This document shows positions 8,138-64,000 of a stretch of 64,000 nucleotides of DNA, one piece after another. Numbering within the stretch: the first letter of the stretch is position 1; each line of letters opens with the position of its first letter. The notes below the pieces were generated by a model that saw nothing but the letters and a program-made list of their open reading frames with translations, had not been told where the DNA came from and did not search any database. The DNA comes from Candidatus Jettenia sp. GTDB lineage: Bacteria; Planctomycetota; Brocadiia; Brocadiales; Brocadiaceae. The stretch is from contig CP091278.1 in the NCBI GenBank assembly GCA_021650895.1, forward strand, positions 2,447,659 to 2,511,658, in the 5' to 3' direction. The translations under genes and the position numbers were made by a program.

Positions 8138-10708
8138 TTATGCTGAGTGTATCTCTGTTGTTTCTGATACGAAATTGTCCGTGTTATTCGTGTTCATGCG
8201 ATTTAAAGGCAGGCTAATATAAAAATCAGTTCCAATGCCCTCTTTGCTTTCTACGTAGATAGCTCCTTCATGATCTTTTATAATTCTGTATACCATAGCG
8301 AGTCCAAGCCCTGTACCTCTGTCTTTATCAGTAAAGAATGGCTCAAAGATCTGTGAGATTTTCTCGGCAGAAATTCCGATGCCGTTATCTGAGACCTTAA
8401 TAACAAAATATAGCTTGTCATTTCGATCATGCACTGAAAGTGAAGCGAAGGAAAAAAAAGTGCTATTCAGATGTATTTTTGCCATTTTCTTAAACTCAGA
8501 AAGACCTTCTGTCAAGCTTGTACTTACCCTGATATGCCCGTTTTCTGGCAGTGCATCAAGACTATTCTGCAGAAGATTTATCAGCACCTGTTTTATCTTA
8601 TCTTCATCTACAATAAGCTGGCATCTTTTTTCTTCAAAGGAGGTAATTATTTTAATACCTTTCTCTGCAGCAATATTCCTGAGAAAATTTACGGTATCTA
8701 TTATGGCGCCATGAGGATCTATATTCTGCAGGACGGGTTTAGAAGGTTTTGCCAAATCTAATAAATCTTCAATAATTCTATTAATCCTCTCTATTTCCTT
8801 TATAGCAATTTTTTGGAAATCATTATGAAATTCTTCGTCATTTTTCTTGTGAGGAAGTAGCTGAAAATAGGTGTTTATTGCTACCAGTGGATTTTTTATC
8901 TCATGTGCAATATTGGCTGCAAGAGTACCGAGATAAGCTAACCGTTCGGAATGCTGCTTTTCGCCCTGAAGTAGTTTCAATTCTGTCAGGTCTGTCAAAA
9001 TTATTAAGGCCCCAAGCTTCTCCCCATCTTCAGTTCTGAGGCTTGTTGTGGTCATACCGCAGGGTATTTTTTTATTTTCACGTTCGACAAGAATTTCGAG
9101 ATTATGGCATTCTTTCTCATTGTTCAAAGTATACCGAATCGCTTCGCGAGCATCTCTGCCAAGGTACTTAAGTATTATTTCGGTTGTACTGACATTCTCC
9201 AACCCGAGAATTCTTTTCACTTCGTTATTGATAAGAGTAAGATTACTATTATTATCCATAACGATAACACCGGTTTTCAGACTCTGAAGGATATTATCTC
9301 TATAAACTTTAGCCTCTTTCAATCCTGCATAAAGACGGGCATTATTAGCCGCCATGGCTAATTGGCCAGAAAAGGCAAGAAACATCTGAATATCTTCCTG
9401 GATAAAAATTTTTTTGTTTATCTTCTTCCCCAAAAAAATTATACCGAAGAGGTCATTCTTTTGAAAAACCGGAACACAACTTTCGACATTCAGGGACGCT
9501 AATTTCTCCTCTAGTACGTGGTCAAGCTCGCTGTGGGTAAAACGGTACAATTGATCCCGTGAAAGAACTGTTCTATTCTGGCAAAGCCACGTAACGATGA
9601 TATCCTGGCTCAGGAGAAATAAATTATCTTCAGGCGTAAAATTTATAGCTGCCTTTAATCTATAGTTCTTGACCTCTTCTTCTTTTAGCAATATGCATAT
9701 CTTTTCAATACCTACAGAATCATACAAGTACTGGATGGCATAATGAAGAAGGCCATTCAAATCATGGATAGAAGAGAACATTATTGTAGAATCACTCAGT
9801 ATCTTTGAATGGCTATACCTGGTGTGGAAAAAAATCTTCTCAATAATATGTTGGATTGATTCTCGAGCAGACACAAAGGCTATAAACGTTACTATTATAG
9901 ACACTACGTTAGTAATGGTATTCCTGTGCTCTGATGCCGGAAGGATGCTACTCAGAAACATTCCAGTAATGAAATAGATTGCACTCATGATAATGGATAG
10001 AGTAAGATAAATTGTACTCCGCTTGATTACTACACTGATATCCATGAGGTGGTATTTTGCAATAGCATAGGCTACCGCTATCGGAATGGGAAGAGATTGA
10101 AATGGTACAAATCTTTCAACTTGCCATATACCTAACATTGGCAAGAGAAAATTTGAAATACTTCCTAAAGATACAGCGACCGCTACTCCATAATATAAAT
10201 ACTGAACTTGTAATCTCTTTATTCCATAATAACGATTGCTTTTCTTATAAAGAATATACAAGGAATACATCATACATAATAAAAAATAAAGCCAAAATAT
10301 AGGAAACAACGAACCGTAGTCAACACAGGGAGCTTGTTCTACAAACGATACAGACTTAATAATGTAAGGGGAAAGAAATACCAGGATAATACTTATAGCA
10401 AAGAAGAAAATACTAGTATATCTATTAACAGATCTTTCTATACGATCAGGGAAAATGGAAGAAAAAAAGAAAAAGGTGGAAGGAATAAAAGTAGCCGCAC
10501 AAAAGACGAGCCTTAGTCTGAAGGCAGCTGATGTTGGATCCTTGGTCTGAAGGGTAATATAAACAAAGAATATCCATATAGAAAAAGCATATGCAAATAC
10601 ACAAAATCTCCTATTAATGATGTTGGCTGGATTTTTTAAGAGTACAAAGATTCCAAGTCCAGCATGCAGCAAAGATATAAATATAAACACAATTTGATTT
10701 ACAAGCAT
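8138..10708 (-). CDS. 7TM sensor histidine kinase (7TM-GAF-PAS-HisKA-HATPase)
   Basis: 856 residues. The N-terminal ~280 residues contain about eight hydrophobic helices resembling the histidine-kinase 7TM sensor region. A GAF-like domain (~310-460) and a PAS domain (~470-580, beginning LKTGVIVMDNNSN) follow. HisKA carries the phospho-acceptor in AHEIKNP (His ~602). The ATPase domain has the N box NLLQNSLDALP, G1 SDNGIGIS and G2 GTGLGLAMVYRI, with about 30 extra residues before G1. Its start is 9 bases after the stop of the ketoacyl synthase gene, so the two are very likely cotranscribed. No response regulator is in the operon; receiver proteins at 14.3 and 17.0 kb are candidate partners. Confidence 0.93.
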   Translation of the reverse strand: MLVNQIVFIFISLLHAGLGIFVLLKNPANIINRRFCVFAYAFSIWIFFVYITLQTKDPTSAAFRLRLVFCAATFIPSTFFFFSSIFPDRIERSVNRYTSIFFFAISIILVFLSPYIIKSVSFVEQAPCVDYGSLFPIFWLYFLLCMMYSLYILYKKSNRYYGIKRLQVQYLYYGVAVAVSLGSISNFLLPMLGIWQVERFVPFQSLPIPIAVAYAIAKYHLMDISVVIKRSTIYLTLSIIMSAIYFITGMFLSSILPASEHRNTITNVVSIIVTFIAFVSARESIQHIIEKIFFHTRYSHSKILSDSTIMFSSIHDLNGLLHYAIQYLYDSVGIEKICILLKEEEVKNYRLKAAINFTPEDNLFLLSQDIIVTWLCQNRTVLSRDQLYRFTHSELDHVLEEKLASLNVESCVPVFQKNDLFGIIFLGKKINKKIFIQEDIQMFLAFSGQLAMAANNARLYAGLKEAKVYRDNILQSLKTGVIVMDNNSNLTLINNEVKRILGLENVSTTEIILKYLGRDAREAIRYTLNNEKECHNLEILVERENKKIPCGMTTTSLRTEDGEKLGALIILTDLTELKLLQGEKQHSERLAYLGTLAANIAHEIKNPLVAINTYFQLLPHKKNDEEFHNDFQKIAIKEIERINRIIEDLLDLAKPSKPVLQNIDPHGAIIDTVNFLRNIAAEKGIKIITSFEEKRCQLIVDEDKIKQVLINLLQNSLDALPENGHIRVSTSLTEGLSEFKKMAKIHLNSTFFSFASLSVHDRNDKLYFVIKVSDNGIGISAEKISQIFEPFFTDKDRGTGLGLAMVYRIIKDHEGAIYVESKEGIGTDFYISLPLNRMNTNNTDNFVSETTEIHSA

Positions 10709-10717
10709 ATACCTTAA

Positions 10718-11962
10718 TTATTGGTATCTTCTTAATACGAGAACAGCATGTGTACCACCTACACTATGGCTGTTTATTAATGCAGTATCGATGGGAAAAT
10801 ATCTAGCATGATGTGGTACATAATCTAAATCACAGAGCGGATCGGAAACATCCAGATTAATCGTTGGAGGAATGATTCCATTCTTTAAACTAAGGAACGT
10901 TGCTACAACCTGAAAACCTCCTCCAGCAGCAAAAGATTGTCCTGTCATAGATTTAATGGAACTTACTGGAATTTTATAGGCACGATCACCGAAGAAAGTC
11001 TTAAATGCATTTGTTTCTGCCACATCATAACCAGGAATAGCATTGCCATGGGCGCAAATATAATCTATCTCTTCTTTGATAATTCTGCCGGCGACCAATG
11101 CCTGTTCCAAAGCACAAACCAATGCCTGACCACTGTTGTCAGTCTGAACAACTTCTTGTGCTTCGCATGTCGAGGCAAATGATACGATCTCACCATATAT
11201 ATCTGCACCTCTATTTAAGGCGTGATTCAATTCTTCAATTACTATTGATGCCCCACCTTCGCTAAGTACCATACCATCGCGATCTTTGTCATATGGTCTC
11301 GAAGCCTTTTCGGGCTCTTTGTTTCTTTTTGAAAGGATTCCTAAGGTACACAAAGTAGACATGGGAAAAGGAAGGATAGGAGCATCAGAGCTTCCTGCAA
11401 TTACCACATCGGCCTCTCCCCGTTTAATCATTTTATAACCGCTATTCACAACATCGAGTCCGGTGGAACATCCAGATGATAGTGTTGAATTGGGACCAGT
11501 AATTTTTAGTGCTGAACATATGTAGCCTGTTGTTACATGTGGCGTCAGTTCAGGAGCTGTAAGGCGACCTACCGCGTTTGGACCAAATTCTAAGAATTTT
11601 TTGTGCTGGCGCTCATATATATCATTTTCAGCTCCTACCGTTGTTCCGAAACATACACCGCATCTATCTTTATTCTCTTTGCTTAAGTTAATTCCTGAGT
11701 CTGCTACTGCCATCTTTGCGGCTGCAATACTCAGGTGAGTATATCGAGCAGTTCTTTTGACCAATTTTGGATCAAAGTAATCACAAGGATCAAAGTCTTT
11801 TACCTCTCCAGCGATTTGTGTGCTTAAGAAAGACGGATCAAAGAAGGTAATCCTTCCTATACCCGATTGTCCATGAATAAGTGCATCCCAGTATTCATCT
11901 TTCCCTTTTCCATTTGGCGCTAATATCCCCAGGCCAGTAATAACGGCACGCCTTGTAACCAT
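10718..11962 (-). CDS. Beta-ketoacyl-ACP synthase, FabF-like, with altered Cys-His-Gln triad
   Basis: 414 residues, the length of FabF/KAS II, with a full thiolase fold. The nucleophile is present in SGCSTGLD (Cys165) and the first histidine in CAHGN (His305). The second catalytic histidine, normally in SMTGH, is glutamine here: SMTGQ, Gln342, codon CAA at 10937-10939. The C-terminal glycine-rich loop reads NSHSVGGTHA where FabF has NSFGFGGTN. It should load an acyl chain on Cys165, but decarboxylative condensation may be impaired or changed. AAGGAGG precedes the ATG and begins in the stop codon of the radical-SAM gene upstream (14-base gap). A role in unusual lipid or polyketide synthesis is inferred from this partner. 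Confidence 0.92.
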   Translation of the reverse strand: MVTRRAVITGLGILAPNGKGKDEYWDALIHGQSGIGRITFFDPSFLSTQIAGEVKDFDPCDYFDPKLVKRTARYTHLSIAAAKMAVADSGINLSKENKDRCGVCFGTTVGAENDIYERQHKKFLEFGPNAVGRLTAPELTPHVTTGYICSALKITGPNSTLSSGCSTGLDVVNSGYKMIKRGEADVVIAGSSDAPILPFPMSTLCTLGILSKRNKEPEKASRPYDKDRDGMVLSEGGASIVIEELNHALNRGADIYGEIVSFASTCEAQEVVQTDNSGQALVCALEQALVAGRIIKEEIDYICAHGNAIPGYDVAETNAFKTFFGDRAYKIPVSSIKSMTGQSFAAGGGFQVVATFLSLKNGIIPPTINLDVSDPLCDLDYVPHHARYFPIDTALINSHSVGGTHAVLVLRRYQ

Positions 11963-11976
11963 AGAGCTTTTCCTCC

Positions 11977-13782
11977 TTAAAGAATATCTTTGTTTGTTAA
12001 AGAGTAGTTTTTCTCGGCTAATTTACGGCTGTATGCATTTATCTTCTGGTAAGTATTCCTAAGGAAACTATAATCTGTTGTCAGTAAGGCCAAATCGCTT
12101 TTCATCTTGAATTCCTCTAAACCTTTCTGATCAACAAATCCTGCGCTTCTTGCCGCAAGACAATGTTCATCAGAGACGTTTACGGTGTATCCCATTTCTC
12201 TAACCTTCTTCTCCATGAACCCGGCCATATTGAGCATATTCAAAAATTTTATTCCCTGTAAAGAAATATTTAATTCAGGCCATGTACTTGGATCCTTTGT
12301 CAGCTCATATTCATAGCGCAAGAGGGTCTGAATATAATCTTTCGGCAGTTCGAAGCCGAATCGCTCAGGCTCTAATTGCCAGTCTGTTGCAGGCAAGGGC
12401 GCGCCAGGGGTTATGAGAATAGAATCTGGTTTATAACCCTCGCTCTTCAATTTATGAAGTAAATATAAATTTTCTCTCAAAACTTGCTCATGAGTTATAC
12501 CATTACCATGAGGTAATGGGCAAGGATAAATAAAACTTATCCCCACGTCGAGATATTTTCCTTGGTTATATGATGCCTGTTTTATAGCCTTGATAGTAAA
12601 ATAGATATCCTCGACAGAATTACCTTTATTCATAACCTTCGTAAGAATTTCATCGTTAGCAGCTTCAACACCCATAAAAACGGCTCGAAGCCCTGAGCTT
12701 ACAATTCTCTCATAAGAATCAATTAACTCCACCATTCTTTCCCTTGCTCCAGGTTCTGCTCGCACAAACATTGAGTACTCTATAATTAAACCCTCTTTTA
12801 ACAATGCATCAGCGATCCGTCTGCCAAGAGAGACAGGTGTTGTCGATCCCGCGAATCTAAAAAGTCCAATACCGAGTTCTTGAATCGTTTTCTTAATTTC
12901 ATCAAGGGTTATATCAATATTCCGGGTTTGATACCTTCCGGTAATATTGGGATGTGTACAAAAGTTACACTTTCCATAATAGCATCCTGAGGATTCATGG
13001 ATTACTGCTATATCTACCTTTCCATCCTCCTTCTCATAAAAAGGAAAAAGTTTTGAGTTTAAAGGAAGTCTTTGAATAGTTGTTTCTTTTACCTTGCCGT
13101 TACTGCTTCTGTATATCAGATTAGGAATTTCATCAGCTTCAGCAAGGGAAATAATCTTTTTTATTACATCAGGTTTTGTACCTCCCTGAGCATACATCTC
13201 TTTTACCAGGGTAATAATTTTTATTAGGGTTATTTCACCCTCAACATCTATACAAAAGTCAAAGGGGCTTTTTTCTAATGCGTTTGTCTTAAATTGATTA
13301 ACCTGTGGTCCGCCGGCAATAACTAACGTATCCGGACTCAATTCATGAACCCTTTGCGCAAGCTTTTCGGAGTATACAAATCTATCTCCAAGCCAGGTTT
13401 TTATACCAAGTACTTTTACTCGCTTCTTGCCTATCTTCGTCGCCAAGGCATCGATATAGTTCTCCATTCTTTCTTTGACAATTTTTGTGAGATTATCCTG
13501 GAGCAGATTCCATTCCTTTCTTAAAGATACGATATCTTCAGTACTTTCCTTATGGAAGATACGAAAGGCAAGTTCTGATAATTTTTGCGTTAAATCATTT
13601 TTTGTGAATGATGTATAAAATTCGATTTGCGCAGGATCTTCAATCGTAATATCAAACCCTGCATCCCTGCAAGCCCTCGCGAGCACTCCAATACCATTCT
13701 CTTTAAAGCAATCACTAAGGGAATAGGCCTTTCCCATGAATGAATTCCATAGCATAAGGTCTATGCTTTGAGAATTGTCCAT
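11977..13782 (-). CDS. B12-binding-type radical SAM enzyme
   Basis: 601 residues. The N-terminal ~270 residues have Rossmann-like segments (VKVLGIKTWLGD, TLVIAGGPQVN) typical of cobalamin-binding radical SAM enzymes. The cluster motif is GCYYGKCNFC, that is Cx4CxxC, one residue longer than the usual Cx3CxxC. A TIM-barrel-like half follows, with FRFAGSTTP and AVFMGVEAANDE. The start at 13782 is set by AGGAGG six bases upstream; an upstream in-frame start at 13827 lacks a site. It is the first gene of an operon with the ketoacyl synthase and the histidine kinase. The substrate is unknown; methylation or ring formation on an acyl chain would fit the neighbour. Confidence 0.88.
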   Translation of the reverse strand: MDNSQSIDLMLWNSFMGKAYSLSDCFKENGIGVLARACRDAGFDITIEDPAQIEFYTSFTKNDLTQKLSELAFRIFHKESTEDIVSLRKEWNLLQDNLTKIVKERMENYIDALATKIGKKRVKVLGIKTWLGDRFVYSEKLAQRVHELSPDTLVIAGGPQVNQFKTNALEKSPFDFCIDVEGEITLIKIITLVKEMYAQGGTKPDVIKKIISLAEADEIPNLIYRSSNGKVKETTIQRLPLNSKLFPFYEKEDGKVDIAVIHESSGCYYGKCNFCTHPNITGRYQTRNIDITLDEIKKTIQELGIGLFRFAGSTTPVSLGRRIADALLKEGLIIEYSMFVRAEPGARERMVELIDSYERIVSSGLRAVFMGVEAANDEILTKVMNKGNSVEDIYFTIKAIKQASYNQGKYLDVGISFIYPCPLPHGNGITHEQVLRENLYLLHKLKSEGYKPDSILITPGAPLPATDWQLEPERFGFELPKDYIQTLLRYEYELTKDPSTWPELNISLQGIKFLNMLNMAGFMEKKVREMGYTVNVSDEHCLAARSAGFVDQKGLEEFKMKSDLALLTTDYSFLRNTYQKINAYSRKLAEKNYSLTNKDIL

Positions 13783-14328: not shown

Positions 14329-15813
14329 CTATGAATCCTGCTTTAAACTTAACCGTTGACGTTCGGAAATCCAATCTTTAGATAGATCGGTAACCGCCTG
14401 TGTTACATCATGAGGAATTGCATTCTCAGAGTTACCTAAATATCCAATTACTAATTTCTCTAATTCCTTTATCTTTGTTTCTAATTTCACAACCTCGCTC
14501 AGATCTGAAAATATCATAATTGCGCCAATTTCTGTATAAGAATCTAACAATAAAGATGTACTGACATCATAAGTAGCTTGGGTAATCGGATGTGTGACCT
14601 CTTTCATCTTATATGTTTTTTTCTCTTTTAAAGTTCTCAGGAGAAAATCGGCAAAGAGAGAGCCAATATACTTAACATCCTTTCCCAATACATCATGAGA
14701 AGAAATATTTAACATCTTTGAAGCACTTCTATTGAAGGTGTTAATCTTATACGCTGTATTTATGGCAATTATACCGTAAGGAATATTTTCCAATACATTC
14801 TCATTATGAATTTTCCTGAGATTTACCTCCTGATAAAGGAATGCATTCTCCACAGCCATGCCTATATATCCTGCCAACATAGATAATAGTTCAATATCCT
14901 CATCAAAAAACACCTTACCGGTAATCTTATTACCCAAGGCGATTACACAACTGAGATTTCCATTAGCAAAGATAGGTATGCATAATTGCGCTTGCAAAAG
15001 ATTTATTTCCTTCTGTACGTTTATTACTTCACGCATAGTTAATTTATTCGTGGTAATTTCTCTATCTATAACATCCTTATTTAATATCTGATGGTTCTTG
15101 GATAGCCATAATATGATACCCTGGTTGTTGGTAAAGAAAATACTTCTGGCAGTTACTTCATCAAAACCCAGGCAACGATAAGGCCTGCTAATACCTTCAT
15201 GTTTATTTACAAGCATAAACACTATTTTTCCCACTTTGAATATATCAGCAATTGCATCAACAATTGAATCAGCAAGCTTTCCAAGGTCATAAACCTGCGT
15301 TAATGCCTTAGAGAACTTTTGGAAGACTTCTTTATATGCCAGGTGCAGATTACTAACGGTTGGCTGCTTATTAAATGTTAACTCAGAAGATCTATTATCT
15401 TCGGGTTTTAAACTTTTTATTTGCGATTGAATAAAACCAAGCTCTCTTTTAAGTTCCTGTTTTTCCAACGCTCTCTTTGCAACAAGCTGTATTGTCTCTT
15501 TTTTAAAAGGTTTTTCAATAAATTCATAAGCTCCCAATTTTATAGCCTCTTCAGATAATGTTGGTTGCGATTCTGGAATTAACGTAACAATCATTGGGTC
15601 TTGATTTGCCTGACGAAGCGTTTCTAACAATTTATTTGCCCCATCATCAGATAAAAGAATATCAAGGAAAGTTAGATCTATGTCTCTATCGAGGAATATT
15701 TGTAATGCCTCGTCAGGTGTTCTGGCAGCATAAACTATATAGTCTCCATCTAAATTCTTTTTAAAAAAATTGCAAACTGAATTATCATTTGAGACTACGA
15801 GAAAAGAGTACAT
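14329..15813 (-). CDS. Receiver-GAF-PAS regulatory protein without recognised output domain
   Basis: 494 residues. A CheY-like receiver comes first (acceptor Asp in LTFLDILLSDD, lysine in FIEKPF), then a short linker helix, a GAF domain (~185-330) with a FDEDIELLSMLAGYIGMAVENA helix end similar to the kinase at 8138, and a PAS domain (~345-450, starting IPYGIIAIN). No HisKA, ATPase, GGDEF, AAA+ or DNA-binding domain follows; the last ~40 residues are helical. ATG at 15813 has GAGGAGG five bases upstream, so a GTG two codons earlier was rejected. It may act as a signalling adaptor for the nearby 7TM kinase, whose GAF domain looks related. Confidence 0.85.
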   Translation of the reverse strand: MYSFLVVSNDNSVCNFFKKNLDGDYIVYAARTPDEALQIFLDRDIDLTFLDILLSDDGANKLLETLRQANQDPMIVTLIPESQPTLSEEAIKLGAYEFIEKPFKKETIQLVAKRALEKQELKRELGFIQSQIKSLKPEDNRSSELTFNKQPTVSNLHLAYKEVFQKFSKALTQVYDLGKLADSIVDAIADIFKVGKIVFMLVNKHEGISRPYRCLGFDEVTARSIFFTNNQGIILWLSKNHQILNKDVIDREITTNKLTMREVINVQKEINLLQAQLCIPIFANGNLSCVIALGNKITGKVFFDEDIELLSMLAGYIGMAVENAFLYQEVNLRKIHNENVLENIPYGIIAINTAYKINTFNRSASKMLNISSHDVLGKDVKYIGSLFADFLLRTLKEKKTYKMKEVTHPITQATYDVSTSLLLDSYTEIGAIMIFSDLSEVVKLETKIKELEKLVIGYLGNSENAIPHDVTQAVTDLSKDWISERQRLSLKQDS

Positions 15814-16998
15814 AGCCACCTCCTCATTAATCCACTAAAAGTAAACTAATATTTTGCCGAAAAACTATACCTTTACAACTATCTTCGATGAACTAAAATA
15901 CAATTATATGCATTATTCCCGGATTATCTTTATCAAAAATCACAAAGTTTAATCTTGAATAATAATCTGCACCATAAACTAGAACGGCCTGTTTCCTCTC
16001 CGGTTCCTAAAAGTATACAATAATGTCAAAGTTATGTTCGAACTTACCTTATTATGATAATAGAAAAATTATAACTAAGATATAATTCGGTAATACTTTA
16101 GAAAAATTTTATCACAATATCTCAGTTTGAATACTGCAATAAGACTGCAATTTTTATACCTATGTTTAAATAATTTAGCGACAACACGGTTGATTTATTT
16201 CCGATCCCAAAAATTATTTAGATAAGGTAATTCTAACATAATAATATAATAACTATGTTGTATTCATTTATTGAATATATATTGACAAAAGCAATCATTA
16301 CTATTAAATTATAACGCCTCATACTATAGCTATTGAAATAGGCCTTTACAAGGCTATATTGTTCTTTGATAGTATTTGCTTTAAGGTTGCTGCGTGCAGA
16401 GAATGATTATTCAATGCGTTAAATATTTAAGGTATTTTTATGTTAGCCATTATTTAATAATCTGGCAATTCAATAAAATGTTAAGATTTTTGAAAAAATA
16501 TTATGTGGATGCCTTGCTTTTCCAACTCTCTTGCATTTCTTTTTTAGTCATCTAAAAATTTATAAGTTTTTCTGAAAATTTTATATCTTTATTAAAATAA
16601 AATCCAATAATAAATGTTCAATTCTGGGTAATAGTGAACATTTTTGTCTAAAATATCCAATGAATAATCAATACATAAACCAAGAGTTAGTTTACAATTT
16701 TTATACTGTTAATAAGATTATAAAATTTACCTTAACTTGTAAGCGGATAGATAGTTAAGTTTTAAAATGTTTAGATAGTCTAATGCGAAATAATAAAAAG
16801 ATGGACGGTCTTTACTTATGATAATACTTAAGTGTTTATCAATATAGCTTTTGTGTAAAATCTTCCATGAAATTCTCTTTCTAAATTACGCTATGAATAA
16901 TTAGTCTCAAATACAAGTAAGATACAATTCATTACCAAACTCTCAAAGCAAGTTGGTACAAAAAATGCGTCACAATTCTGAATTAGAGGAATTATCAT
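15814..16998. other. Intergenic, 1.2 kb, very AT-rich
   Basis: The longest gene-free stretch in the window, lying between divergent genes for two receiver proteins. No tRNA, obvious small ORF or long inverted repeat was seen. AGAGGA before the HD-GYP gene is the only clear signal. An unrecognised small RNA or an extensive regulatory region is possible. Confidence 0.5.
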
Positions 16999-18048
16999 AT
17001 GGAACAAAAAACTAAATCAGCAAATATACTGGTAATCGATGATGATCTTGGTGTAAGAGAATCATTAAAAATGACTCTAAAAGACAGATACTCCGTTTTT
17101 ACACTATCAAGTGTTAATGAAGCACTGAATAATCTAAAAAGTATTAAACCAGAAATGATATTCCTTGATATACGAATGCCAAAGTCAAATGGCTTAGACT
17201 TTCTTAAGCAAATGCAATCTATTAATTCTACAATCCCAATAGTTATGATTACAGCATATCCTTCTTCACAAACAGCGATCACTGCTTTACGAAATGGCGC
17301 ATTTGATTATATTATAAAACCCTTTAATCTTTCTGAAATACATGCAGCGGTAGATAAGGCTCTTAACTACCGTAATGAATTATCAAAAAAGGATATGCTG
17401 GTATACAATCTGAAGATGGCTGTTCATAAGAATTTCTTTTCAACTGCACATGCTCTTTTACTCGCTATAGATGCTAAAGATTCTTACACAGCAACTCACT
17501 CGAAGAACGTATCCTGGCTATTTTCTTTAGTAGCTGACGAACTTGGCATGAGTAAATCAAAAATTGAAGTTTTGCGGTATGGCGCATTCCTTCACGATAT
17601 AGGAAAGATTGGTGTAAGTGATACAGTACTTATGAAACCAAACTATCTTACTGCGGATGAATTTCTTTTAATGAAGCGACATCCTGAGATCGGTTATAAT
17701 ATTCTTGAGCCTATAAATTTTTTAAAAGAAAGCTTGCCAATTGTGCGTCATCATCACGAATGGTATAACGGTCAGGGTTATCCAGATGGCCTGAAGGAAG
17801 CAGAAATTCCTTATGAGGCTGCCATTTTCTCTATAATAGATGTTTACGATGCCTTAACTTCTGATAGGCATTACCGTAAAAAATTTTCTCATGAAAAGGC
17901 GCTCGAAATTATCACGGAAGGGATAAATACTCAATTTGTACCTAATCTGACTGAAGAGGTTCTTGCTATTATTGATAAATACTATGAAATTAGCAATGAG
18001 AATAAGCGGATTGATGAATTTTTAGAACCAAGCGATAATGTACAATAA
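16999..18048 (+). CDS. HD-GYP response regulator (probable c-di-GMP phosphodiesterase)
   Basis: 349 residues. The receiver domain (1-120) has the acidic pair in VIDDD, acceptor Asp in MIFLDIRMP and Lys in IIKPFN. It is joined to an HD-GYP domain (~145-330) with FLHDIGKIGV (His-Asp at ~199-200), RHHHEWYNGQGYPDG (GYP at ~260) and IIDVYDALTSDRHYR. All expected metal and motif residues are present, so hydrolysis of cyclic di-GMP is likely. The ribosome site AGAGGA lies eight bases before the ATG. It stands alone after a long AT-rich leader; the cognate kinase is not adjacent. Confidence 0.95.
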   Translation: MEQKTKSANILVIDDDLGVRESLKMTLKDRYSVFTLSSVNEALNNLKSIKPEMIFLDIRMPKSNGLDFLKQMQSINSTIPIVMITAYPSSQTAITALRNGAFDYIIKPFNLSEIHAAVDKALNYRNELSKKDMLVYNLKMAVHKNFFSTAHALLLAIDAKDSYTATHSKNVSWLFSLVADELGMSKSKIEVLRYGAFLHDIGKIGVSDTVLMKPNYLTADEFLLMKRHPEIGYNILEPINFLKESLPIVRHHHEWYNGQGYPDGLKEAEIPYEAAIFSIIDVYDALTSDRHYRKKFSHEKALEIITEGINTQFVPNLTEEVLAIIDKYYEISNENKRIDEFLEPSDNVQ

Positions 18049-24084: not shown

Positions 24085-27000
24085 TCATCGCCTTAAAGCG
24101 GCTTCCTTTCCTTTCGTTGGGTAATTTTGCTTTGGTAACATCGGGCTTTCCAGAGAGAGACCCTTCCATCTGAGCAACATGGGACATGCAATAAAAATGG
24201 TAGAATAGGTACCTACTATAATTCCGACCAGCATGACAAATGCGAATCCATGAATCTCTGGTCCACCCAGGAAGAACAGGGCAAGCAATACGCCAATAGT
24301 GGTAATACCTGTTAAAAGAGTTCGGCTTAAAGTTTGATTAATACTATCATTAACCAGTTGAGGTGTGAGTATTTTACCCCGTCCGCCCATATTTTCCCTA
24401 ATTCTATCAAATATAACAATCGTATCATTCAGAGAATAGCCGATTACCGTAAGAAATGCCGCTACTATGGCTCCGTCGATCTTCATATTTCCAAATAAAT
24501 AATCAGCTATAGCCACAGCGCCAAGGGTAATCAAAATATCGTGGATAACAGCAACAATTGCGGATGAGCCAAATCGAAAATCTCCAAACCGGAACCACAC
24601 ATAAAATATCGTTGCAATACAAGAGAATATCACAGCCAGAATAGCCCGGCCCTTCATTTCGCCAGCAACAGTGGAACCGATACTAACAATTCTCTTCAGT
24701 GGTTGGGGTATTTCGAATGCATTTATTAAGGTCTTTTTTATTGTTTCTGCATCTTGAGTATTGAAAACAACAGAAACAGCTTGATACTCTTGCCCTTCCT
24801 CCAAACCTTCACCGAGGATGTTGGGGTAGCCAGCCGAGGCTAGCGCCTCTTCAATAACTTCCTTTTTTAAAGGTTTTGACAAAGTCATACGGGCTCGTAC
24901 TTGATTTGACTCGTTTTCTTGGATTGCTTCTGCAGATGAGACTGGTGGAACACTATCGTCAATCGATTGTGTATCACTAAGTTCTGTGCCTTGAGAAACG
25001 TTCCCGATAAATTCAAAAGAAACATGTATTTTTTCTTTATACAAATTATCTTGAAAGGTATTAATTATATCCTCTCGAATTTTCTCTTGCACCTTTGCGG
25101 CACTCAAGGGCTGTACATGAACAGTAAATAATTGTGAGGGAGCATCCAGTGCGTAAATACTTTTTACATCATTTTTTAGAGGTTTAATTCCTTCAATCGT
25201 AGCTACAAAATCTTTTTTCGTAATATCCTCTTTTAATTCCACCTGAATAGCATCATCTCTGATAGAAATGCTCGGTATAGAGATCTGCTCCTTCACTGTT
25301 TGCTTTACATCTTGCAAAATTGTTTTTGAACCTTCGATCATTAATTTATAAGAACGTATCTTTTCAGCATCTTGTAACTGTTTTTTTACGGTAACATCCT
25401 GAAATCCCATCCTGTTTAATTCAAAACTGAGAAGGGCTGGTTCTATTGCTTCACTAACTTCCACATTCAGAAAAGGCTTCGGTGATATTATATCTGTATC
25501 CTGAGTCGGTACCATTTCAGTGATTTCAGACAACGTTATATGAACATCATGAAAATGTAAGTTATTTTTTAATCCATCCACAACCGCATTAACAAGTTGT
25601 AAACGCTTTTTGGCATCTTCCATTCCTTTTACATTTATTGCATATTTTTTTGCAGGCTGATCAACAGGCATTAGCGATAGCAAATCTTCCTGGCCATACC
25701 CGACTGTTTTGAGAATATCCCGAATCGAATTCTCCTCTATCGGCTTTTGCAACTTAAGATTAAATACTGTTGGCTCAAGAAAATCAATTCCTGCAAATAA
25801 ACCTACTTTATCTAAAGCACCCTTTATATCTTCCGTTAATTTTTCTTTTATCTTTTCATCATTCAATTCTTTTATTCGGATTCCGAATTCATTGGATGAT
25901 GATACAAACTGTGTTAAATTCTCACCAGCCCAAATACTCTGGACCTCAGCCTCTTTATAACTTGTCTCGGCCAGCTCATTCCTTACAACTCCAGGTTGTA
26001 TTGGATTATTGAGATGCAAATGAACCAGGGTACCACCGGTAAAATCGATATCATATTTCTTGTTTCCACGAAGAATAAATATGGTCATCCCGCCAATAAG
26101 GCATATGCCGGAAATAATCGCCAAAGCATATCGGTAATTAACAAATTTAACGTGAGGAATGCCAATTAATTTGAACATGGAAAAATTCTTTATCCAGCCT
26201 AAATCCATGAAAAAATCATACATAACCCGTGTTACAAAAATAGCGGTAAACAAGTTGATAATCATTCCAAGGATTAATGTCCATGCAAAGCCTTTTACAG
26301 GGCCAGTACCGACTGCGGCGAGTATCACTCCTGTAATTAACGTAGTAACATTAGAGTCAAAAATAGCTGAAAACGCCTTCTCATATCCGGCCTTTACGGC
26401 TGCACGATTGGGCTTTCCTTTTGCTCTTTCCTCACGAATTCTCTCGAAAATAAGCACATTAGAATCAATTCCCATACCTAGCATGAGCACCAAACCTGCT
26501 ATACCAGGAAGTGTCATGGTAGCATTGAGTAACACCATCGTTGCAACTACCAAAAAGACATTCAAAACATTTGCAAAGTTAGCAACCCATCCGATTCCTA
26601 AATAATAAATTCCAATAAAGAGGAGGGCAAAGGCGCCGCCTACAGCACCGGCTAATAATCCTTTATTGATCGAATCCCTTCCCAGACTAGGTCCTACCAT
26701 GGTTTCCATCTCTAGCTCAAGATCTGCGGGAAGACTTCCCGCACGCATTACAGCAATAAGATCATTAACTTCATCTTGGGTGAAACTTCCCTCAATAATC
26801 CCTTGCCCCGGAATACGATCGCGTATCACTGGCGCTGAATAGAGAGTGCCATCCAGGATAATTGCTAAAGGCTTACCAATGTTACGCTCGGTAAGTTGGC
26901 CAAATTTAGATTTGCCAATCGCATCAAATTCAAAACCAACCACAGGCTCAATACCCTTACGATCAGCGTATATTCTGGATAGATGTTCTCCTGAAATTGC

Positions 27001-27672
27001 TATTTTATTCTGAACAAGAAACCACTTACCTGCCTCACCCTCTTCTCCCTTTTTCTTTCGCAACCAATGTTTATAATAACCGGGAACTTGCTTTCCTTCC
27101 ATTGCATCTTTATACTCAGGACTATCAGGACTAGCTCCTAACCTGAACTCAAGTTTCCCAAGGCGGGTAATTCGATTCTTTAAACCTTCGACCTCTGCCC
27201 TGGCTGCACCAGGAACCTGAATAAGTATGCGATGGCTTCCCTGCTCTTGAATTCTGTATTCTATGACTCCTTGCGGGTCAATCCTCTTTTTTAATACCTC
27301 AATAATTTCATTAGTAATCCCCGGACGATCTTCTTTCTCTTCCACCCTGACTTTATAAAGTAACTCGGAACCACCTTTGAGGTCTAACCCAAGCTTAACC
27401 TTACCCTTTGATACATACTCAACGGTCTTTGTGCTTACCTTTTTGCCATCTTTATTAACTTCTTCATGTACAATCGTCTCCCGGATAGTTGGGTTTGTTA
27501 CGAAAACGCGTGTCCATGATTTTTCTAAGATAGTGCGATCTACAACCTTACCATCAATCTCTTTGACTTGTTCCCTCTTTAATACCTTTTCCGATGGTGG
27601 ATACAAAATCATGGTACCGATAGCAATAACTATGATAATAAGAGGTATCCTCCACCTTAAATTTTTCGCCAT
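24085..27672 (-). CDS. secDF: Fused protein translocase SecDF with expanded periplasmic domain
   Basis: 1195 residues, against about 750 for ordinary fused SecDF. The SecD half (1-~500) has an N-terminal helix, LGLDLKGGSELLY, the P1 region and five clustered helices with GMGIDSNVLIFERIREE. The SecF half begins ~510 (FTGGTLVHLHL) and ends in five helices with VIGYSLNDTIVIFDRIREN. Between ~560 and ~985 are about 430 residues where SecF normally has ~100. They read as roughly five related beta-alpha units, each opening like KPIEENSIRDILKTVGY or KPLKKEVIEEALASAGY. The protein uses proton motive force to help SecYEG export. It follows yajC by 82 bases. Confidence 0.95.
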   Translation of the reverse strand: MAKNLRWRIPLIIIVIAIGTMILYPPSEKVLKREQVKEIDGKVVDRTILEKSWTRVFVTNPTIRETIVHEEVNKDGKKVSTKTVEYVSKGKVKLGLDLKGGSELLYKVRVEEKEDRPGITNEIIEVLKKRIDPQGVIEYRIQEQGSHRILIQVPGAARAEVEGLKNRITRLGKLEFRLGASPDSPEYKDAMEGKQVPGYYKHWLRKKKGEEGEAGKWFLVQNKIAISGEHLSRIYADRKGIEPVVGFEFDAIGKSKFGQLTERNIGKPLAIILDGTLYSAPVIRDRIPGQGIIEGSFTQDEVNDLIAVMRAGSLPADLELEMETMVGPSLGRDSINKGLLAGAVGGAFALLFIGIYYLGIGWVANFANVLNVFLVVATMVLLNATMTLPGIAGLVLMLGMGIDSNVLIFERIREERAKGKPNRAAVKAGYEKAFSAIFDSNVTTLITGVILAAVGTGPVKGFAWTLILGMIINLFTAIFVTRVMYDFFMDLGWIKNFSMFKLIGIPHVKFVNYRYALAIISGICLIGGMTIFILRGNKKYDIDFTGGTLVHLHLNNPIQPGVVRNELAETSYKEAEVQSIWAGENLTQFVSSSNEFGIRIKELNDEKIKEKLTEDIKGALDKVGLFAGIDFLEPTVFNLKLQKPIEENSIRDILKTVGYGQEDLLSLMPVDQPAKKYAINVKGMEDAKKRLQLVNAVVDGLKNNLHFHDVHITLSEITEMVPTQDTDIISPKPFLNVEVSEAIEPALLSFELNRMGFQDVTVKKQLQDAEKIRSYKLMIEGSKTILQDVKQTVKEQISIPSISIRDDAIQVELKEDITKKDFVATIEGIKPLKNDVKSIYALDAPSQLFTVHVQPLSAAKVQEKIREDIINTFQDNLYKEKIHVSFEFIGNVSQGTELSDTQSIDDSVPPVSSAEAIQENESNQVRARMTLSKPLKKEVIEEALASAGYPNILGEGLEEGQEYQAVSVVFNTQDAETIKKTLINAFEIPQPLKRIVSIGSTVAGEMKGRAILAVIFSCIATIFYVWFRFGDFRFGSSAIVAVIHDILITLGAVAIADYLFGNMKIDGAIVAAFLTVIGYSLNDTIVIFDRIRENMGGRGKILTPQLVNDSINQTLSRTLLTGITTIGVLLALFFLGGPEIHGFAFVMLVGIIVGTYSTIFIACPMLLRWKGLSLESPMLPKQNYPTKGKEAALRR

Positions 27673-62883: not shown

Positions 62884-64000
62884 ATGGGAAAAGGATTTTT
62901 AGGTGTAGTATTAGTAAGTCTTGCAATCTTTTTGAACTCTTGTGTTACTACCCAAAGGCAAGTAAAGGAGGCAGAAGAGCACGAGTTAAGGCAGAAAGAG
63001 ACATCTGCACCTGTAGAACCTGTACCTGCACAGCCAGAAGCTGTTGCCCCCGTTGAACCCGCTCCAGAAGCTGTTATTCCTTCACTGCCAGAAGAAGAGG
63101 TTGGGGAAGAAACACCTGCCGAAGAGGAAGACCTTGAAGAAGCGCCAATAACAGAACCTGCACAGCCAGAAGCTGCTGCCCCCGTTGAACCCGCTCCAGA
63201 AGCTGTTATTCCTTCACTGCCAGAAGAAGAGGTTGGGGAAGAAACACCTGCCGAAGAGGAAGACCTTGAAGAAGCGCCAATAACAGAACCTGCACAGCCA
63301 GAAGCTGCTGCCCCCGTTGAACCCGCTCCAGAAGCTGTTATTCCTTCACTGCCAGAAGAAGAGGTTGGGGAAGAAACACCTGCCGAAGAGGAAGACCTTG
63401 AAGAAGCACCAATAACAGAACCTGCACAGCCAGAAGCTGCTGCCCCCGTTGAACCCGCTCCAGAAGCTGTTATTCCTTCACTGCCAGAAGAAGAGGTTGG
63501 GGAAGAAACACCTGCCGAAGAGGAAGACCTTGAAGAAGCACCAATAACAGAACCTGCACAGCCAGAAGCTGCTGCCCCCGTTGAACCCGCTCCAGAAGCT
63601 GTTATTCCTTCACTGCCAGAAGAAGAGGTTGGGGAAGAAACACCTGCCGAAGAGGAAGACCTTGAAGAAGCACCAATAACAGAACCTGCACAGCCAGAAG
63701 CTGCTGCCCCCGTTGAACCCGCTCCTGAGGCTGCCACTTCTACAGAACAAACGGAATCTATGGGAAAGTCTATAAATCAGTGTACCACCTGTAATAAAGC
63801 AGCTGGAGAAGGACATGTCTGCGGCCTTACTACATATTGCCAACAATGCTCAGAAGAAGTTGGACCTGGCCATATCTGCGATTTAACCTTCTTTTGCTCT
63901 GATTGTAAAAAAGAAGTTGGAGACGGTCATATTTGTAATGTGACAACATTCTGCACAAAATGTGAAGAAGAAGTTGGATCTGGCCACATCTGCGATATAA
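62884..64000 (+). CDS. Repeat lipoprotein with C-terminal CxxC/GHxC array (3' end outside window)
   Basis: The ATG at 62884 follows AGGAGA. A lipoprotein signal (VLVSLAIFLNSC, cysteine 20) is followed by an acidic Pro/Glu/Ala-rich stalk of five 44-residue repeats (PAQPEAxAPVEPAPEAVIPS, then LPEEEVGEETPAEEEDLEEA and PITE) and a sixth partial copy. Then come at least four ~20-residue units of form CxxC-x4-E/A-x-G-x-GHxC (QCTTCNK, YCQQCSE, FCSDCKK, FCTKCEE, each followed by GHVC or GHIC). Each unit could bind one zinc or iron. A surface or periplasmic metal-binding or structural role is inferred. The frame is still open at the window's end. Confidence 0.82.
   Translation, partial: MGKGFLGVVLVSLAIFLNSCVTTQRQVKEAEEHELRQKETSAPVEPVPAQPEAVAPVEPAPEAVIPSLPEEEVGEETPAEEEDLEEAPITEPAQPEAAAPVEPAPEAVIPSLPEEEVGEETPAEEEDLEEAPITEPAQPEAAAPVEPAPEAVIPSLPEEEVGEETPAEEEDLEEAPITEPAQPEAAAPVEPAPEAVIPSLPEEEVGEETPAEEEDLEEAPITEPAQPEAAAPVEPAPEAVIPSLPEEEVGEETPAEEEDLEEAPITEPAQPEAAAPVEPAPEAATSTEQTESMGKSINQCTTCNKAAGEGHVCGLTTYCQQCSEEVGPGHICDLTFFCSDCKKEVGDGHICNVTTFCTKCEEEVGSGHICDI
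63025..63730 (+). repeat. 132-bp tandem repeat, five full copies plus a partial
   Basis: Units start at 63025, 63157, 63289, 63421 and 63553, with a partial copy from 63685. They are nearly identical (for example gcgcca against gcacca late in the unit), keep the reading frame and lie within the lipoprotein gene. The near identity indicates recent expansion or ongoing homogenisation. Confidence 0.97.

What the first reader, a model, noticed from the sequence alone, without database searches (positions are those of the whole stretch)
10718..11962. Ketoacyl synthase with catalytic His replaced by Gln
FabF-type synthases use Cys-His-His. Here Cys165 and His305 are kept, but the second His, in the SMTGH motif, is Gln342 (codon CAA at 10937-10939). 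The C-terminal loop is also altered (NSHSVGGTHA). The change is not the Cys-to-Gln change of KSQ domains or chain length factors. The protein may act as a transferase, a priming or length-control partner, or a synthase with unusual chemistry.
Basis: partly seen in the sequence, partly recalled or inferred. Interest (0 to 1): 0.68.

Follow-up and report, generated by a model that had tools for sequence, protein, structure and literature searches.

The report
Anammox ketosynthase, His-to-Gln, sensor-linked cassette
A fatty-acid-type carbon-joining enzyme of an ammonium-oxidising bacterium has swapped one catalytic histidine for glutamine and rebuilt its gate, and it is always inherited together with a vitamin-B12 radical enzyme and a membrane sensor, which suggests a dedicated, possibly signal-making, pathway.

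Summary
The protein at 10718-11962 (-) is a FabF-type ketosynthase with Cys165 and His305 intact and Gln342 aligned to E. coli FabF His340. It is not an error or a decaying gene. A subfamily ("KS*") of 27 orthologues in 62 Brocadiales genomes carries Gln in 20, encoded by both CAA and CAG, under strong purifying selection. Seven orthologues, one Brocadia clade, carry His. Gln is therefore conserved but not indispensable. More fundamental, and present in all 27, is a rebuilt gate (Phe398, Gly399, Phe400 to His, Ser, Val; Asn404 to His), with Thr305 to Asn and Glu349 to Gln. KS* lies in a three-gene run with a cobalamin-type radical SAM enzyme and a histidine kinase with a membrane sensor domain. 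KS* and the kinase occur in exactly the same 27 genomes, the radical SAM gene in 26 of them (the exception is a contig end); all three are absent from the other 35, including, by inference, ladderane makers. It is thus probably not a core ladderane enzyme. Best reading: an active Cys-His-Gln ketosynthase, analogous to Cys-His-Asn enzymes, making a small acyl-derived product that the radical SAM enzyme modifies and the kinase senses. The cassette is shown; chemistry and signalling are inferred.

The parts
10718..11962 (-). KS*: FabF-like ketosynthase, Cys165-His305-Gln342
   Evidence: Translation; PF00109/PF02801; NCBIfam FabF subfamily NF005589 397.5 bits vs cut-off 387, but TIGR03150 FabF equivalog 411.7 vs cut-off 493.75
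10937..10939 (-). codon of Gln342 (CAA), at the place of FabF His340
11468..11470 (-). codon of Cys165 (FabF Cys163)
11048..11050 (-). codon of His305 (FabF His303), followed by Asn307 and Ile309 where FabF has Thr305 and Thr307
10748..10774 (-). rebuilt loop 1, N397-S-H-S-V-G-G-T-H405, in place of FabF N-S-F-G-F-G-G-T-N
   Evidence: role of GFGG loop, Phe400 and Asn404 from PMC7138838
11977..13782 (-). cobalamin-type radical SAM enzyme, immediately upstream of KS* (14-bp gap)
   Evidence: PF04055, weak PF02310; AlphaFold model mean pLDDT 79.9, VIA-align best matches OxsB 5ul4 Z 19.9 (rmsd 3.8, 408 residues), TsrM 6wtf Z 18.5, MgmA 9ccb Z 18.0, CysS 9n1d Z 17.1, TokK 7kdx Z 15.8
12958..12984 (-). 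cluster-binding cysteines of the radical SAM enzyme, C267-X4-C272-X2-C275
   Evidence: invariant in 11 orthologues
8138..10708 (-). histidine kinase with N-terminal 7TM region, PAS, HisKA and HATPase; 9-bp gap after KS*
   Evidence: Pfam PF16927, PF00989, PF00512, PF02518; gap table; N-terminal region present in exactly the genomes with KS*
14329..15819 (-). receiver-GAF-PAS protein upstream, frequent but not constant member of the neighbourhood
   Evidence: Pfam; family c3 in most loci

Best explanation
KS* is a working enzyme of a dedicated small pathway found only in some anammox-type bacteria. Cys165 takes up an acyl group as in every ketosynthase. His305 and Gln342 together hold the thioester carbonyl of the second substrate and stabilise the enolate, Gln playing the hydrogen-bond-donor role that His340 has in FabF and that Asn has in Cys-His-Asn ketosynthases. 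The rebuilt gate (no Phe400; His and Ser instead of Phe398 and Gly399) and altered pantetheine channel give it an unusual second substrate or release step rather than iterative chain elongation. The cobalamin radical SAM enzyme encoded next to it methylates or rearranges the product, probably while it is still bound to a carrier. The product is most likely sensed by the co-encoded histidine kinase, so that the cassette is a signal synthase plus its receptor. Shown: the sequence, the gene run, the co-inheritance, the selection. Inferred: the role of Gln342, the chemistry, and the signal function.
For: Conserved catalytic Cys, His303, Lys335, Asp311 and Glu314 in all orthologues and dN/dS 0.04-0.11 speak for an active enzyme. 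Gln is fixed in 20 of 27 orthologues and changes only once within the family. KS* and the kinase's sensor region are present together in the same 27 of 62 genomes and the radical SAM gene in 26 of them, all three absent in the other 35; the one gap, G037, is a contig end in a 58%-complete genome. They lie in one run with mostly very short gaps. In Anammoxibacter (G002) the kinase is about 7 kb from KS* and still co-occurs, with a sigma54-type response regulator and a receiver-GAF-PAS-kinase beside the radical SAM gene. The radical SAM fold matches cobalamin enzymes, among them CysS and TokK solved with pantetheinylated substrates. Precedents: PqsBC, a signal-making ketosynthase that lacks the third catalytic residue, and FabH, which uses Asn at that place (PMC4807248); autoinducer synthase and sensor genes are usually adjacent and co-evolve as a cassette (PMC3376566).
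Against: No product, activity or expression is known. In one Brocadia clade the residue is His, so Gln cannot be essential to the cassette's function. Co-inheritance of neighbouring genes may reflect joint transfer or loss of a block. A kinase in a biosynthetic operon may only regulate it, or sense membrane or redox state. The KS* structure prediction was poor (mean pLDDT 46.4), so the geometry of Gln342 and His399 was not examined.
Confidence: 0.42

Rival explanations
1. KS* is an acyltransferase or priming enzyme: Cys165 accepts an acyl group and passes it to a carrier or small molecule, and loss of His340 has removed malonyl decarboxylation. The cassette makes a lipid or cofactor-like metabolite and the kinase only controls its expression.
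For: Both His residues contact the substrate carbonyl in FabF (PMC7138838), so losing one fits loss of condensation; Thr305, Thr307, Phe400 and Glu349 are changed too. Most genomes with the cassette have no dedicated ACP or partner KS in it.
Against: One clade has His with the rest of the family's signature unchanged, which would be odd if condensation had been given up. Asn serves at this place in Cys-His-Asn enzymes, so an amide does not preclude condensation.
Confidence: 0.27
2. KS* belongs to lipid modification (for example methyl-branched or other unusual membrane lipids), with the radical SAM enzyme as lipid methylase and the kinase as a membrane-state sensor.
For: FabF-like ketosynthase plus B12-radical SAM enzyme; anammox bacteria have unusual lipids; ladderane clusters contain divergent FabF paralogues and radical SAM genes (PMC2649909).
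Against: Absent from the complete genome G031 (genus of Kuenenia hertensis, by inference K. stuttgartiensis) and from all 17 genomes of family f4, so not part of a lipid pathway common to anammox bacteria. No other lipid gene lies beside it in the window.
Confidence: 0.18
3. KS* is a chain-length-factor-like or non-catalytic partner subunit.
For: In eight Brocadiaceae loci a Cys-His-His KS, a degenerate KS and, where found, an ACP lie just upstream.
Against: KS* keeps Cys and His303, unlike chain length factors; the degenerate KS in those loci (Ala, Ser, Phe at the three places) already fits that role; 15 loci with resolved flanks, including the window, lack the partner KS.
Confidence: 0.07
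4. Gln342 is a neutral or slightly harmful substitution in a gene with an ordinary FabF role.
For: His is found in one clade of the family.
Against: Gln is kept over orthologues down to 61% identity with synonymous codon change; six other active-site positions are fixed differently in the whole family; an ordinary FabF with the full triad is present elsewhere in the genome (L002).
Confidence: 0.06

Closest known systems
FabF / KAS II (Cys-His-His elongating ketosynthases)
   Same: Fold family, length, Cys163, His303, Lys335, Asp311, Glu314; best solved relative B. subtilis FabF 4ls5
   Different: His340>Gln in most members; Thr305>Asn, Thr307>Ile/Met, Glu349>Gln, gate FGFGG>HSVGG and Asn404>His in all; own clade with 100/100 support
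FabH / KAS III and other Cys-His-Asn ketosynthases
   Same: Cys, one His and a side-chain amide at the third place: what it may work like
   Different: Belongs by sequence to the FabF branch, not to KAS III
PqsBC of Pseudomonas aeruginosa
   Same: Signal-pathway ketosynthase lacking the third catalytic residue (PMC4807248)
   Different: FabH-type heterodimer with Val at the place; no radical SAM partner
CqsA/CqsS and LqsA/LqsS signal synthase-kinase pairs
   Same: Biosynthetic gene next to a membrane histidine kinase gene, co-inherited (PMC3376566)
   Different: Those synthases are not ketosynthases (own knowledge); no signal is known here
Anammox ladderane-cluster KS paralogues (PDB 9s5h; Kuste2805, 3348, 3606)
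   Same: Divergent FabF paralogues in anammox bacteria; the window genome's L003 closely matches 9s5h_B
   Different: Those lie elsewhere in the genome; KS* is absent from several anammox lineages and has a different residue set
Cobalamin radical SAM enzymes OxsB, TsrM, CysS, TokK (for the partner)
   Same: Two-domain fold, VIA-align Z 15-20 over about 400 residues
   Different: Cluster motif spaced CX4CX2C; no NCBIfam model reaches its cut-off

Membership tests
FabF (KAS II) | sequence match to the family | tested here: met
   NF005589 397.5 bits vs 387; PF00109 and PF02801 above gathering; but the FabF equivalog TIGR03150 is below cut-off, 411.7 vs 493.75
FabF (KAS II) | Cys-His-His triad | tested here: not met
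   Gln at His340 in the window protein and 19 orthologues; His in 7
FabF (KAS II) | GFGG gating loop with Phe400 | tested here: not met
   SVGG in all 27 except SVGN in one
FabF (KAS II) | decarboxylative condensation with malonyl-ACP | not testable with these tools
   needs the purified protein
Chain length factor | loss of the active-site Cys | tested here: not met
   Cys165 invariant
Chain length factor | gene next to its partner ketosynthase | tested here: not met
   no second KS in the window neighbourhood
KSQ domain | Cys to Gln | tested here: not met
KAS III (Cys-His-Asn) | sequence match to KAS III | tested here: not met
   no KAS III family among the NCBIfam or Pfam matches
Ladderane pathway enzyme | present in ladderane-making lineages generally | tested here: not met
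   absent from 35 of 62 Brocadiales genomes, incl. all f4 and G031; that these are ladderane makers rests on inferred names
Autoinducer synthase-kinase cassette | synthase and membrane kinase genes adjacent and co-inherited | tested here: met
Autoinducer synthase-kinase cassette | product sensed by the kinase | not testable with these tools
   no compound known
Cobalamin radical SAM methylase (partner) | cobalamin-binding plus radical SAM fold | tested here: met
Cobalamin radical SAM methylase (partner) | canonical CX3CX2C motif | tested here: not met
   CX4CX2C invariant in 11 orthologues

The most novel reading that the evidence does not exclude
KS* and its cobalamin radical SAM partner are a previously undescribed signal synthase of anammox bacteria, using a Cys-His-Gln condensation, and the adjacent 7TM histidine kinase is the receptor: a new class of cell-cell signal that is neither acyl-homoserine lactone nor hydroxyketone.
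Probability: 0.28. Interest if true: 0.8.

Novelty: new variant of a known kind. Interest (0 to 1): 0.52.

Why it matters
If the enzyme condenses with Gln in place of the second His, it shows in nature that the FabF branch can work with an amide triad like the KAS III branch, and the Gln/His switch between close orthologues is a natural experiment for the role of that residue. If the cassette makes a sensed product, it gives a testable, genome-defined signalling system in bacteria that are used in wastewater treatment and that grow in dense communities.

Tried and rejected
Ladderane role: rejected as the default because of the distribution. Chain-length-factor role: rejected on residues and gene context. 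His399 as a stand-in for the lost His: not favoured, since His399 is equally present in the orthologues that have His at 340. Gln/His tied to the presence of the extra KS-KS-ACP genes: 6 of 8 loci with those genes have His, 2 have Gln, none of 15 without has His; only one or two independent contrasts exist, so no test is possible. AlphaFold model of KS* too poor to use. Sigma-54 sites: 49 weak matches over the window against 24 expected, none convincing upstream of the radical SAM gene. Literature searches for a Cys-His-Gln ketosynthase, for anammox ketosynthase/chain-length-factor papers and for a KS-radical SAM-kinase cassette found nothing relevant; most subscription papers are not in that library.

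Full report
Observation. The ORF at 10718-11962 on the minus strand codes for 414 residues. Its closest solved relatives by sequence are FabF enzymes, best B. subtilis FabF 4ls5 with E 1.5e-99 (organism from own knowledge). Aligned with E. coli FabF from K-12, Cys165 falls on Cys163, His305 on His303, Lys337 on Lys335 and Gln342 on His340.

Is Gln342 conserved? A search of 62 genomes of the order found orthologues in 27, 61-100% identical to the window protein and clearly apart from the other ketosynthases, which are at most about 42% identical. They form one clade with 100/100 support. Of 27 distinct sequences, twenty have Gln, with both CAA and CAG codons; seven have His, always CAT. On a tree built without that column, the seven His rows are one clade at 100/99. 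They sit beside a Gln row (84/93) within the Gln rows; the whole tree needs two changes of state and the orthologues alone one. With ordinary FabF outgroups all His, the simplest reading is His to Gln once on the stem and Gln to His once in Brocadia; counts of changes cannot prove the direction. dN/dS between orthologues is 0.04-0.11 in pairs from both states, so the gene is under purifying selection either way. Nine alignment positions separate the His clade from the Gln rows, among them FabF positions 132, 193, 229, 270 and 340, so several other positions changed together with the residue.

Rarity. A degenerate DNA pattern for K-S-M-x-G-Q-x-x-[GA]-A in 334 planctomycete genomes matched 13 KS* genes and six stretches with no similarity to a ketosynthase; the same pattern with His matched in 239 genomes. 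Gln at this place is thus confined to KS* among the sampled planctomycetes, within the limits of the pattern.

What else is changed. Thirteen positions are fixed in KS* and fixed to another residue in six comparison ketosynthases. They include FabF Thr305>Asn, Glu349>Gln, Phe398>His, Gly399>Ser, Phe400>Val and Asn404>His. Loop 2 (Tyr267, His268, Thr270) is changed as well. In FabF, His303 and His340 contact the substrate carbonyl, the GFGG loop with Phe400 is the gate, Gly399 is a pivot, and Asn404 stabilises the open gate; a Phe400Ala mutant of another FabF loses control of reaction order (PMC7138838). The gate of KS* is therefore rebuilt, and it is rebuilt in the His members too. This, more than Gln342, defines the subfamily.

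Gene context. KS* lies between a radical SAM gene (14-bp gap) and a histidine kinase gene (9-bp gap). The radical SAM protein has a radical SAM domain and a weak B12-binding match; its model (mean pLDDT 79.9) aligns best with cobalamin radical SAM enzymes, OxsB Z 19.9, TsrM 18.5, MgmA 18.0, CysS 17.1 and TokK 15.8. CysS and TokK have been solved with pantetheinylated substrates (titles), which fits a carrier-bound substrate. Its cluster motif is CX4CX2C. The kinase has an N-terminal 7TM region, PAS, HisKA and HATPase domains. In the window's genome no other gene matches the kinase's first 300 residues.

Co-inheritance. Searches for KS*, the radical SAM enzyme and the kinase's N-terminal region gave the same set: KS* and the kinase in the same 27 genomes, the radical SAM gene in 26 of them, the missing one being at a contig end in a 58%-complete genome; none of the three in the other 35. 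G031, a single 4.4-Mb contig of g6, is probably K. stuttgartiensis and lacks the cassette; f4, which lacks it in all 17 genomes, is probably the Scalindua family. These two names are inferences. As these lineages make ladderanes (own knowledge; PMC2649909 for Kuenenia), KS* is unlikely to be a core ladderane enzyme. Nor does its residue set match the divergent Kuenenia fabF paralogues tabulated in that paper.

Extra genes in some loci. In eight Brocadiaceae loci a degenerate KS (Ala/Ser/Phe or Gly/Ser/Tyr at the three catalytic places), a Cys-His-His KS and, where found, an ACP lie upstream of the radical SAM gene. Six of these have His in KS*, two have Gln; none of the 15 other loci with resolved flanks has His. 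This hints that His goes with a local ACP and partner KS, but the tree offers only one or two independent contrasts.

Mechanism. Loss of one His does not mean a dead enzyme. FabH uses Cys-His-Asn; PqsC, which makes a quinolone signal precursor, has no third residue and lets its substrate supply the group (PMC4807248). Gln can place an amide NH2 about where the outer ring nitrogen of His lies (own structural reasoning, not tested). I therefore favour an active Cys-His-Gln enzyme with an unusual second substrate over a pure transferase, but only moderately.

Function. Synthase genes of diffusible signals usually lie beside the gene of their sensor and are believed to co-evolve with it as a cassette (PMC3376566). 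A biosynthetic pair that, in the genomes searched, never occurs without one particular membrane kinase fits this pattern. Quorum-sensing work on anammox bacteria that I found concerns acyl-homoserine lactones (PMC7734396). The signal reading remains an inference; regulation of a lipid or other metabolite pathway by the kinase is the main alternative.

Verdict. It is a new variant of a known enzyme kind in a cassette that I did not find described.

Noticed in passing
L040, L041, L044, L047, L048, L053, L055, L102 (5' of the radical SAM gene): In eight Brocadiaceae loci a degenerate ketosynthase, a Cys-His-His ketosynthase and often an ACP precede the radical SAM-KS*-kinase genes: a larger type II cluster that other genomes lack.
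   Followed up: partly
window 12958-12984; also L101 9083-11023: The radical SAM partner has a CX4CX2C motif instead of CX3CX2C; a stand-alone distant relative in another planctomycete family (G362) has the same spacing and no ketosynthase beside it.
   Followed up: partly
L039 7800-9203: Anammoxibacter (G002) has a second B12-radical SAM gene directly after KS*, below cut-off for all named families.
   Followed up: no
window 16999-18048 (+): A response regulator with a receiver and, judged by its sequence, an HD-GYP-like domain is a frequent divergent neighbour of the cassette in Brocadiaceae (family c4).
   Followed up: no
L010 and L110 (G020 contigs C104, C105): Genome G020 (a Brocadia MAG) contains short contigs with two Jettenia-type copies of KS*, one identical to the window's: probably binning contamination.
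   Followed up: no
window 63024-63733: A nearly perfect 132-bp tandem repeat (5.4 copies, 99% matches) near the window's end.
   Followed up: no
window 24085-27672 (-): SecD and SecF appear fused in one 1195-residue protein with a long insertion (judged by sequence only).
   Followed up: no
L003/L004 (window genome), PDB 9s5h: The solved structure 9s5h holds two KS chains; chain B closely matches the anammox KS in L003, whose neighbour L004 has Val, Asn and Glu at the catalytic places.
   Followed up: partly
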